This document shows positions 19,577 to 32,588 of a stretch of 32,588 bases of DNA, piece by piece. Positions within the stretch are counted from its first letter, which is position 1; each line of letters starts with the position of its first letter. Origin of the DNA: Methanoregulaceae archaeon. GTDB lineage: Bacteria; Armatimonadota; Fimbriimonadia; Fimbriimonadales; Fimbriimonadaceae. The notes under the pieces were generated by a model. That model was not told where the DNA came from and did no database searches. It saw only the letters and a program-made list of their open reading frames with translations. The stretch is from positions 1 to 32,588 of the forward strand of contig JADZEW010000038.1 of assembly GCA_020850325.1 (NCBI GenBank). Direction: 5' to 3'. The position numbers and the translations under genes are program-made.

Positions 19577-20027
19577 GCAAGATCCCGTAGTCGGCTTCCT
19601 TAAGCACTCCATCGATGTACACCAGATAGACCCAAAACGAAGGAGCGAGATCGTCCGGGACCACTGCGCTATGGTGGTAGAAACGAAGTTCGCCGGTGAA
19701 GCGGTCGCGCTCTGACTTCGTTGCTGTCCAGCGGTCATACGGGCCGAGGTTAAGGGTGTCGAATCCGCCGTACTTATCCCGGTAGGAGCCCGTGCCGCGA
19801 CGCGCCTTTGGATTCGGTGTCCACTTCAGGACATCCGAGCTCTCATAGAACTGCGTTAGGTACGCGTCAAGTTCGCTGAGGCGGCTACCGACGGGGATGC
19901 GGGTCACGATGGCCTTGGGGTCGGGTCGGCAGGCGATGGAGATGAGACACGGAGCGAGACACAGGCCGAGTACCCCGACGATCAACACCGCGGTCGCAAG
20001 GGCGCGAGGTTTCCTCGGTGTGCTCAT
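19569..20027 (-). CDS. Hypothetical membrane-anchored protein
   Basis: The 152-residue protein has a basic N-terminus (STPRKPR) and one transmembrane helix (about residues 12-33, ALATAVLIVGVLGLCLAP), then a soluble domain. The soluble part begins with a conserved-looking VTRIPVGSRLSELDAYL, reminiscent of SmpA/BamE-like or immunity-type proteins, but this is not firm. I do not recognise the family. A TATAGT box lies five bases before the ATG without a Shine-Dalgarno sequence, a leaderless pattern. Confidence 0.65.
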   Translation of the reverse strand: MSTPRKPRALATAVLIVGVLGLCLAPCLISIACRPDPKAIVTRIPVGSRLSELDAYLTQFYESSDVLKWTPNPKARRGTGSYRDKYGGFDTLNLGPYDRWTATKSERDRFTGELRFYHHSAVVPDDLAPSFWVYLVYIDGVLKEADYGILPG

Positions 20028-29926: not shown

Positions 29927-30520
29927 CTAAACGTAAAATCTCGCCCAGCCGACCCGCACATGCCAGGTCCCTTCTCGTTTCTCGAGGACGAACTGCACGT
30001 CGGCCGAGTGGATCGACCACGGCATGCTGAACTGCACCCATGCGAACTGGCCGTTCGGCGAATAGCGTGGCTTTGAGGCGCGAGCCGAAACGGGACCTGA
30101 TGAATAATCGCGGGTGATCCGGTCGACCAATTGGATGCCAGCCCTCCAGGTGACGTCTCGGAAGTCAACCAGCCGGGATGGGGCAGAGCTGCCCTTCTGC
30201 TTGGCCAGCGGGATGATCCTCCCGAGTTCTTGGGACGTGCGCTCGTAGTAGAGAAGATACTCTTTGTCCCGCGAGGTCTTGCTTTCCTTCTTGGTGCGTG
30301 CCACAGCAGAGTCCGCTTCGACCTTGAGCTTGCGCAAGGTCAACTCCATCGACGTGGGCTCATCTTTGGCGAACTTGTCCAGCACCTGGATGGGTTGCTT
30401 GGGTTCCCAGTCAGCTGCGTGCCAAATCTCCTTCTTGTAGAACGAGAGGAGCGCGGCCTGGATCACATCGCGGTCGTCGTTCCCCGCGAGGGCGAGCATG
30501 AGCAGCAGCGAAGCCTGCAT
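29927..30520 (-). CDS. Hypothetical secreted protein
   Basis: The 197-residue protein starts with a short hydrophobic leader (MQASLLLMLALAG), then a charged helical middle (KLKVEADSAVARTKKESK). A C-terminal beta-rich part, with YSPNGQFAWVQFSMPWSIHS in outline and a closing GTWHVRVGW, resembles the NTF2-like or lipocalin-like tails of other secreted proteins nearby. No family is recognised. A CAAAAT box lies six bases before the ATG without a Shine-Dalgarno sequence. An octamer-repeat region lies between this gene and the next gene upstream. Confidence 0.65.
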   Translation of the reverse strand: MQASLLLMLALAGNDDRDVIQAALLSFYKKEIWHAADWEPKQPIQVLDKFAKDEPTSMELTLRKLKVEADSAVARTKKESKTSRDKEYLLYYERTSQELGRIIPLAKQKGSSAPSRLVDFRDVTWRAGIQLVDRITRDYSSGPVSARASKPRYSPNGQFAWVQFSMPWSIHSADVQFVLEKREGTWHVRVGWARFYV

Positions 30521-30526
30521 AGGGGC

Positions 30527-30532
30527 ATTTTG
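30527..30532 (-). promoter_or_regulatory. -10-like box of the 29927-30520 gene
   Basis: CAAAAT on the minus strand ends six bases before ATG at 30520. Confidence 0.4.
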
Positions 30533-30545
30533 GCACGAAAGGCTT

Positions 30546-30576
30546 GTTAGCGTGTTGGCGTGTTGGTTTGTTGGAA
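30546..30576 (+). repeat. Octamer tandem array, left
   Basis: Units GTTAGCGT, GTTGGCGT, GTTGGTTT and GTTGGAA lie in strict phase of eight (the last has seven). A GTTC unit follows. They read on the plus strand. Confidence 0.75.
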
Positions 30577-30648
30577 GTTCAGGCGAGCTGCGGGCCGGCT
30601 TCACGGCAAGCAGAGCACGAGGAATCCCTACCTCAAGTCAACTCTTAT

Positions 30649-30704
30649 CAACCAACACACGAACTGGCTAACAATCCAACACGCTAACAGACAAACACGC
30701 CAAC
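30649..30704 (-). repeat. Octamer tandem array, right (inverted)
   Basis: Seven octamers in perfect phase read on the minus strand: GTTGGCGT, GTTTGTCT, GTTAGCGT, GTTGGATT, GTTAGCCA, GTTCGTGT and GTTGGTTG. They are opposite in orientation to the left array, about 70 bases away. GTTAGCGTGTTGG of the left array has an exact 13-base reverse complement at 30676-30688. Confidence 0.8.
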
Positions 30705-30710
30705 CCGCCG

Positions 30711-31736
30711 TCAGAAATCAAACTCGGCGATGTTCTCTTTCGTGAACGTGATCGTCCCGCCGAGCATCACGTTATCGCCGACGACCTTCTTCTCGCCCAG
30801 TCGACCGGCTTTGATCGTGGTCGAGCCAGACTTCAGATCTCCATCCACCAACGCTCGCGCGGCGAACACCGTCAGGTAGCCGAGATCCTTCGTGTTCCAC
30901 AGAGTCACCGACTTCACGACGCCGTCGTTCACGTAGGTGCGCATGTCGTTCGGCGTCGAGAGGCCGTTGACATAGACCTGCCCTGACTTGCCCGATTGCT
31001 TGATCGCTTCGGCAGCGCCCGGGAAAGCGGCAGAGCTGATCGCGAAGATGCCTTTCAGATTCGGATAAGCCTTGAGCATGTCTTGAGTCACCGAGAACGC
31101 CAGCTTCTGGTCCTCGTTCGACGGCTTGGTCGCAACCAAGTTCATGCCCGGGTACTTCTCCAGCCTCGTTTTCATGTGCTTCATCCACTCGTTCTGGTTG
31201 GCGGCGGTCAGGGTTGCGGTCACAATCGCCACATCGCCAGTGGCATTCTCGCCCCCCATGTCGGCGGCCATCGAATCCACCAGTGCAAAACCAATCTCTT
31301 CGGGCGTGGCCTGGTTGACCAAAAACTCGCGGTTCGCGGGGTCCGCATCGGCATCCCAAGTGATGACCCTCACTCCCGCGTCGCGCGCCCGCTTCATCGC
31401 CGGGCCGAGGACGGCGGGGTCGTTGGGCGAAACGGCAATAACGTCCACCCCCTGCGCCGTCCACTGGTCGATCAGCTTAGCGGCCTCAGCGGGATCGCCG
31501 CTGGTCGGACCGTCATAGATGAGTTCGACGTTGCCGAGTTCCTTTGCCGCCTCCATGGCCCCTTCCGAGCAGCTGGTGAAGTACGGCACCCCCTTCTTCT
31601 TGGGGAGCATTGCCACCGTGATCTGCTTGCCGGTTGCGGGAGCGGCACCGCCGGACTTGGGCATCGTGGTGGTCGTTTCCTTACCGACGCAGCCGGCGAG
31701 AGCGACGAGAGCGAGTGCGGCAACGAGAATCTTCAT
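30711..31736 (-). CDS. Sugar-type ABC substrate-binding lipoprotein (RbsB/RhaS-like)
   Basis: The 341-residue protein has a lipoprotein signal with lipobox LAGC (Cys about 16) and a periplasmic-binding fold of the ribose/rhamnose/AI-2 type (Peripla_BP_4). Visible features are VAMLPKKKGVPYF, DQWTAQGVDVIAVSPNDP, VRVITWDADAD and a hinge region near GIFAISSAAFPGA. It would bind a sugar or sugar-like ligand for an ABC importer. No permease or ATPase gene is present in the window, so it is an orphan here. A TATAAT box lies 12 bases before ATG, giving a very short leader. The octamer-repeat region lies directly downstream. Confidence 0.92.
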   Translation of the reverse strand: MKILVAALALVALAGCVGKETTTTMPKSGGAAPATGKQITVAMLPKKKGVPYFTSCSEGAMEAAKELGNVELIYDGPTSGDPAEAAKLIDQWTAQGVDVIAVSPNDPAVLGPAMKRARDAGVRVITWDADADPANREFLVNQATPEEIGFALVDSMAADMGGENATGDVAIVTATLTAANQNEWMKHMKTRLEKYPGMNLVATKPSNEDQKLAFSVTQDMLKAYPNLKGIFAISSAAFPGAAEAIKQSGKSGQVYVNGLSTPNDMRTYVNDGVVKSVTLWNTKDLGYLTVFAARALVDGDLKSGSTTIKAGRLGEKKVVGDNVMLGGTITFTKENIAEFDF

Positions 31737-32461: not shown

Positions 32462-32588
32462 TGGTCTGCCCCCCGGAATCCGGGCCAGTGATACCATTAG
32501 ACTCCGCTTGAAGGAGTCAACTTTGAAGAAATCGAGATTCAGCGAAGAGCAGATCGTCCGGATCCTGAACGAGGTCAGTTCGGGCAAG
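32462..32588 (+). mobile_element. IS3-family insertion sequence, left end (partial)
   Basis: The left end begins TGGTCTGCCCCCC, an IS3-type terminal repeat, with a CCCGGAATCCGGG palindrome just inside. A small hairpin GACTCC...GGAGTC (32500-32518) carries the ribosome site of orfA. The right end and any target duplication are outside the window. Confidence 0.8.
32523..32588 (+). CDS. IS3-family transposase OrfA, N-terminal fragment
   Basis: The first 22 residues, with a TTG start, include KKSRFSEEQIVRIL, the standard opening of IS3-family OrfA (helix-turn-helix protein that recognises the IS ends). AAGGAG lies six bases before the start. In this family OrfB with the DDE catalytic site is usually made by programmed frameshifting as OrfAB. 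The remainder lies beyond the window. Confidence 0.88.
   Translation, partial: MKKSRFSEEQIVRILNEVSSGK

What the first reader, a model, noticed from the sequence alone, without database searches (positions are those of the whole stretch)
30546..30704. Inverted pair of strict period-8 GTT octamer arrays
Four octamers on the plus strand and seven on the minus strand face each other across about 70 bases. Each unit starts with GTT and most fit GTTDGNNT. The phase is perfect over seven units. Only within-unit positions vary, and a 13-base block is repeated as an exact inverted repeat. This is unlike CRISPR and unlike ordinary operators. Possibilities are a non-autonomous mobile repeat, a phased protein-binding array or an RNA hairpin that forms in several registers. 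Heptamer repeats (STRR) in cyanobacteria are a loose parallel.
Basis: seen in the sequence. Interest (0 to 1): 0.7.

Follow-up and report, generated by a model that had tools for sequence, protein, structure and literature searches.

The report
Octamer repeats bracketing gene spacers
The spacer between two genes of this uncultured Fimbriimonadaceae bacterium is bracketed by two runs of a loose 8-base word that point at each other; the genome has about 37 such places, a sister species often has a related 7-base word in the same spacers, and the whole resembles repeats already described in Xanthomonas and Nostoc whose purpose is still unknown.

Summary
Four GTT octamers (30546-30577, +) and seven (30649-30704, -) face each other across 71 bases. 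Three-unit arrays match 42 times in this genome against 1 for the reversed control, at about 37 mostly intergenic places, and in only two genera among 291 Armatimonadota genomes. The hairpin reading is not supported: arms of one locus match each other no better than arms of different loci, the sense strand folds no better than the antisense, and terminators are neither replaced nor enriched. What is constant is geometry. All 34 two-armed spacers are convergent; the G/T strand reads away from the nearest gene, starting mostly within about 10 bases of a stop codon, or just outside the -10 box on the start side. In a sister species (30% divergence at 4-fold sites) 12 of 26 slots keep the octamer with its GTT-G core nearly unchanged, and 9 carry a different 7-base word (GTNGRAT) in the same orientation. 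The layout matches the GGGNATC heptamers of Xanthomonas and Nostoc, but the octamers hold no three-tier quadruplex motif, so that proposed basis cannot be general. It is a new variant of a known kind. A role at transcription-unit borders is plausible but unproven.

The parts
30546..30577 (+). left array, four GTT octamers, 25 bases upstream of the start codon of the gene at 29927-30520 (-), reading into the spacer
30649..30704 (-). right array, seven GTT octamers, beginning 6 bases after the stop codon of the gene at 30711-31736 (-), reading into the spacer
30578..30648 (.). spacer between the arrays; only short matches elsewhere in the genome; clearly alignable in the sister species
30545..30558 (+). 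one copy of the 14-base exact inverted block (other copy 30676-30689)
30527..30532 (-). -10-like hexamer CAAAAT, 6 bases upstream of ATG: the gene looks leaderless and the array lies outside its transcript
   Evidence: inference
29927..30520 (-). flanking gene, 196 aa as called here, no Pfam family
30711..31736 (-). flanking gene, periplasmic sugar-binding protein (Peripla_BP_4)

Best explanation
It is a lineage-specific intergenic short-tandem-repeat element that sits on gene edges. Each array is a run of a degenerate word (GTTRGNNT) whose G/T-rich strand reads away from the adjacent gene into the spacer, so two-edged spacers carry convergent arrays that only look like a hairpin. SHOWN: placement, orientation, unit heterogeneity, preservation of the GTT-G core between species, change of unit number, a 7-base word in place of the octamer in the same slots of the sister species, and location outside transcripts as far as the -10 boxes and stop codons tell. 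INFERRED: arrays grow and shrink by whole units through slippage or unequal exchange, and are kept because they act at transcription-unit borders. A polymerase about to enter a gene from the spacer would transcribe a C-rich, G-poor, unstructured repeat, which suits Rho-type termination or a binding protein, while the gene's own transcript does not contain it. I put about 0.85 on the identification as a gene-edge repeat of the same kind as GGGNATC and about 0.3 on the border function.
For: Recurrence. All 34 two-armed spacers are +/- (20 octamer, 14 heptamer), none -/+; single arrays point away from the nearer gene in 31 of 36. Most stop-side arrays begin -5 to +10 bases from the stop codon. 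A -10-like hexamer lies between array and ATG, above shuffled segments (p 7.5e-5), and -10 boxes 4-7 bases before ATG are general here (25 seen, 3.3 expected). Core identity between species G1 0.98, T2 0.91, T3 0.93, G5 0.98 against 0.70 at 4-fold sites. Slot sharing: 8 of 21 exact 7-mer loci of the sister species fall in the 26 tested octamer slots (hypergeometric p 4e-9 with an estimated 1130 spacers). Same geometry in the literature: PMC4692102.
Against: Gene contexts match background (p 0.46) and terminators are not depleted (7/58 against 14/110), so no border role is visible at that level. Ordinary spacers here show no matching base skew at gene edges. Only a few percent of spacers carry arrays. 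Conservation of A as well as C positions in the AC strand is more than a purely compositional rut model needs. Core identity may be inflated because an aligner can pair non-orthologous units. No RNA data.
Confidence: 0.5

Rival explanations
1. Neutral or selfish repeats without host function: heptamer and octamer words multiply by slippage in spacers that tolerate them, and fill all DNA not needed for the -10 box, start or stop.
For: Array spacers turn over faster than ordinary spacers (mean identity 0.775 same word, 0.587 switched or decayed, 0.885 without array). Only 2 genera of 291 genomes. Neighbours are ordinary genes (thyX, topoisomerase, groES, tuf, a class II tRNA synthetase). Gene contexts match background.
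Against: Does not explain why orientation follows the gene edge, why the core stays near-invariant while R4, N6 and N7 vary, or why the sister species puts another word in the same slots.
Confidence: 0.27
2. Binding array for a sequence-specific DNA protein (nucleoid or promoter-upstream factor), one protomer per 8 bases.
For: Core GTT-G conserved, R4/N6/N7 free; start-side arrays cover the expected -35 region of leaderless promoters.
Against: A 7-base word with a different core holds the same slots in the sister species; a pair is not needed (23 of 37 octamer spacers of G000 have no convergent pair).
Confidence: 0.1
3. REPIN- or MITE-like mobile element whose inverted ends are the arrays.
For: Always convergent; the focal slot in other genera has no array and mostly a short spacer; switched slots are replaced from edge to edge.
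Against: No shared body between loci; single-armed arrays are common; 12 of 26 slots keep the same word across species; no empty site among the 26.
Confidence: 0.09
4. RNA hairpin or terminator that pairs in several registers.
For: The + strand of the focal region folds better than shuffles (z -5.1), the - strand less so (z -2.7).
Against: Both flanking genes are on -, the poorer folding strand. Arms of a locus match no better than arms of other loci (permutation p 0.70 and 0.39). Sense folds better in 10 of 23 codirectional spacers. No terminator enrichment or depletion. Divergent spacers carry arrays too.
Confidence: 0.04

Closest known systems
GGGNATC heptamer repeats of Xanthomonas and Nostoc (Rehm et al. 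2015, PMC4692102)
   Same: Intergenic; degenerate short units; convergent pairs close together (70-75 cases in Xanthomonas); [quoted passage not shown] kept in the same gene context between relatives with length variation; ordinary neighbouring genes.
   Different: Unit of 8 with core GTT-G instead of 7 with GGG; 0 of 75 octamer arrays hold a three-tier quadruplex motif; not significantly scarce between divergent genes; the sister species has another word in many of the same slots.
TAACTGA heptamer direct repeats of Beggiatoaceae, cyanobacteria and Bacteroidetes (MacGregor 2015, PMC4679880)
   Same: Intergenic tandem words, mostly directed at start codons, no pattern in gene function, indels of whole units between close strains.
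   Different: Largely invariant word, almost never inverted, mainly on start sides and often 1 base from the start codon; ours also lie after stop codons.
Cyanobacterial STRR sequences
   Same: Several degenerate heptamer classes in one genome (from memory; not tested).
   Different: Unit length and core differ.
REP/REPIN elements
   Same: Intergenic, often as inverted pairs.
   Different: No conserved palindromic body; arms are multi-unit arrays; loops unrelated.

Membership tests
GGGNATC-type gene-edge repeats | 7-base unit with a GGG tract, able to form a G-quadruplex | tested here: not met
   8-base unit GTTRGNNT; three-tier motif in 0 of 75 octamer arrays and 4 of 38 heptamer arrays
GGGNATC-type gene-edge repeats | intergenic, G-rich strand reading away from the nearest ORF | tested here: met
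   one clear in-gene exception at L082:7261-7300
GGGNATC-type gene-edge repeats | frequent convergent pairs | tested here: met
   34 of 34 two-armed spacers convergent
[quoted passage not shown]
   12 of 26 slots same word, 9 of 26 other word in the slot
GGGNATC-type gene-edge repeats | under-represented between divergent ORFs | tested here: inconclusive
   7 of 38 array spacers divergent against 36 of 127 in the sample, p 0.46 over all contexts
Cyanobacterial STRR | heptamer units of the published words | not tested
   published words not scanned for; the unit here is 8 bases
REPIN/MITE | copies share a body or end sequence beyond the words | tested here: not met
   the focal loop gives only short matches elsewhere in the genome
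REPIN/MITE | target-site duplication or empty site | tested here: inconclusive
   no empty site among 26 slots; outgroup spacers too different to compare
RNA hairpin / intrinsic terminator | compensatory pairing of the two arms | tested here: not met
RNA hairpin / intrinsic terminator | T-tract after the stem, found at gene 3' ends | tested here: not met
   terminators at 7 of 58 array-flanked 3' ends against 14 of 110 controls; arrays also lie at starts

The most novel reading that the evidence does not exclude
These are word-independent border elements of transcription units. The slot and the direction are what selection keeps, while the tandem word (8-base GTTRGNNT, 7-base GTNGRAT, 10-base TTGGCTCGGR) is swapped between sister species, perhaps together with a binding factor. 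The quadruplex-forming GGGNATC repeats of Xanthomonas would then be one dialect of a broader border system that does not depend on quadruplexes.
Probability: 0.2. Interest if true: 0.8.

Novelty: new variant of a known kind. Interest (0 to 1): 0.5.

Why it matters
The role of gene-edge heptamer repeats in Xanthomonas, Nostoc and Beggiatoaceae is an open question, with G-quadruplexes as the idea tested for GGGNATC. Here is an independent lineage with the same placement rule and a word that cannot form the three-tier quadruplex, plus a sister species with another word in many of the same spacers. That separates the placement rule from the word and gives a natural experiment on what these repeats do.

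Tried and rejected
RNA family scan: only two tRNAs in the window. Multi-register hairpin: rejected on arm matching and strand tests. Arrays replacing terminators: rejected. Quadruplexes as common basis: rejected for the octamers. Link with the 23S rRNA-intervening-sequence protein gene, seen next to the one long array of G018/G058: only 1-3 such genes per genome, not linked. General base skew at gene edges: absent. Arrays as 5' leader sequence: unlikely in general, a -10-like hexamer lies between array and ATG in most cases. The literature library holds nothing on such repeats in Fimbriimonas or Armatimonadetes.

Full report
THE OBSERVATION. The arrays are as described: four units on + (30546-30577), seven on - (30649-30704), strict 8-base phase, 71-base spacer, and a 14-base exact inverted block. 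Two-unit matches in the window number 5 against 0.05 expected, and no order-2 shuffle reaches the weaker array. In the genome (G000, 3.52 Mb, 41 contigs) the three-unit pattern matches 42 times against 1 for the reversed control, the two-unit pattern 99 against 9. These fall at about 37 places. A random 400 kb sample holds no octamer array and 7-mer arrays at three places, plus some other tandem classes, so arrays mark only a few percent of spacers.

WHERE IT COMES FROM. A gyrase subunit A search places the window near Fimbriimonadaceae MAGs of Armatimonadota (92% DNA identity to the closest). Among 85 family genomes only G000, its congener G001 and two species of another genus (G018, G058, one long array each) have three-unit arrays. 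A four-unit pattern gives the same four among 291 genomes of the phylum. In G018 and G058 the array of about 17 units lies between a 23S rRNA-intervening-sequence protein gene and a groEL-like reading frame.

GEOMETRY. I called genes with a codon-usage ORF finder of my own, so coordinates of starts are approximate. Arrays are intergenic with one clear exception. In all 34 spacers with both orientations the + array comes first (20 octamer, 14 heptamer); none is reversed. Single arrays point away from the nearer gene in 31 of 36. Most stop-side arrays begin within -5 to +10 bases of the stop codon; start-side arrays mostly begin within about 40 bases of the start codon. Between array and start lies a -10-like hexamer, usually 5-12 bases before the start codon, better than shuffled segments (p 7.5e-5). 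The same spacing is general in this genome (25 seen, 3.3 expected at 4-7 bases), which suggests leaderless transcription. Start-side arrays then lie outside the gene's own transcript. For the focal locus the hexamer is CAAAAT at 30527-30532. In about a third of the start-side cases the array abuts the called start and no hexamer fits between; some of these starts may be miscalled.

NOT A HAIRPIN. The inverted look comes from two directional arrays. Local alignment of the two arms of a locus scores no higher than arms taken from different loci (octamer 380.5 against a permuted mean of 388.1, p 0.70; heptamer 214.5 against 212.4, p 0.39). In 23 codirectional spacers the sense strand folds better in 10 (p 0.23). 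At the focal locus the better folding strand is +, opposite to both genes. Intrinsic terminators occur at 7 of 58 array-flanked 3' ends and 14 of 110 controls.

EVOLUTION. G001 diverges from G000 by 30% at 4-fold sites. At the focal slot both species have convergent arrays; the loop aligns well while unit number and free positions differ. Of 26 slots compared, 12 keep the octamer, 9 carry 7-base arrays (GTNGRAT) in the same orientation, and 5 are decayed or hold other sequence (classification by my reading of the printed spacers). Some arms hold both words end to end (L078/L110, L085/L106, L087). By exact pattern G001 has 35 seven-mer matches to 15 in G000, the reverse of the octamer balance. 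Eight of the 21 exact seven-mer loci of G001 lie in the 26 tested slots, against about 0.5 expected (hypergeometric p 4e-9, with the number of spacers estimated from the sample). In slots that keep the octamer, identity per position is G 0.98, T 0.91, T 0.93, R 0.75, G 0.98, N 0.56, N 0.79, T 0.84. Mean spacer identity is 0.775 with the same word, 0.587 in the switched or decayed group, 0.885 without arrays. A caveat: the aligner may pair non-orthologous units, which raises core identity, and slots were called 'same' because an array was detected.

OTHER WORDS. A 10-base class (TTGGCTCGGR-like) occurs in G000 spacers, several times directly after stop codons (L148, L150, L154, L155), and another genus (G048) has 7-base arrays of ACCCGAA type in spacers, at least one with its G-rich strand reading away from the neighbouring gene.

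WHAT IS KNOWN. Rehm et al. 2015 (PMC4692102) describe GGGNATC heptamers in Xanthomonas and Nostoc with convergent pairs and the same placement rule; they showed quadruplex formation in vitro but identified no function. MacGregor 2015 (PMC4679880) describes TAACTGA heptamers directed at start codons. The present arrays share the layout of the first, differ in unit length and core, and hold no three-tier quadruplex motif (0 of 75), so they are a variant of that kind and not members by its defining word.

HOW IT MAY WORK. The arrays behave as directional DNA elements at the edge of transcription units. A unifying but unproven reading is that they act on transcripts about to enter a gene from outside, which would carry a C-rich, G-poor repeat (a Rho-utilisation-like composition, from general knowledge), while the gene's own transcript mostly escapes because it begins at or near the start codon. 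The conserved A positions and the absence of a general edge skew speak against a purely compositional effect. A functionless slippage repeat is the main rival; it does not explain the orientation rule or the slot sharing.

Noticed in passing
G000 sample L144-L163; window 30527-30532: -10-like hexamers peak 4-7 bases before start codons genome-wide (25 seen, 3.3 expected), suggesting widespread leaderless transcription in this lineage.
   Followed up: partly
L111:1539-2160 (G018), L142 (G058): A roughly 17-unit octamer array lies between a 23S rRNA-intervening-sequence protein gene (PF05635) and a groEL-like frame in another genus; G001 also has such a gene (C50:86-382) on the contig that holds its groES-side array slot.
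   Followed up: partly
L148:1348-1380, L150:15018-15062, L154:17943-17969: A 10-base degenerate tandem word (TTGGCTCGGR-like) in spacers of the same genome, several directly after stop codons.
   Followed up: partly
L168:18902-18941 and 19753-19782 (G048): 7-base ACCCGAA-type arrays in spacers of another genus, at least one with its G-rich strand reading away from the gene.
   Followed up: partly
L084, L094, L153: Dispersed REP-like palindrome (about GCGCGGTACGA..CCCGCGCGCCTCGTGG) in several spacers.
   Followed up: no
L126 (G001) and window 30600-30640: The focal loop and an unrelated slot in G001 share a GCAGGGCACGAG..CATCCCTGC-like hairpin, perhaps another small dispersed repeat.
   Followed up: no
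L082:7261-7300: A three-unit octamer array inside a predicted coding region (antisense), the only clear in-gene case.
   Followed up: no
window 32523-32588: Start of a transposase-like reading frame (KKSRFSEEQIVRILNEVSSG, IS3-type from memory), cut by the window end.
   Followed up: no
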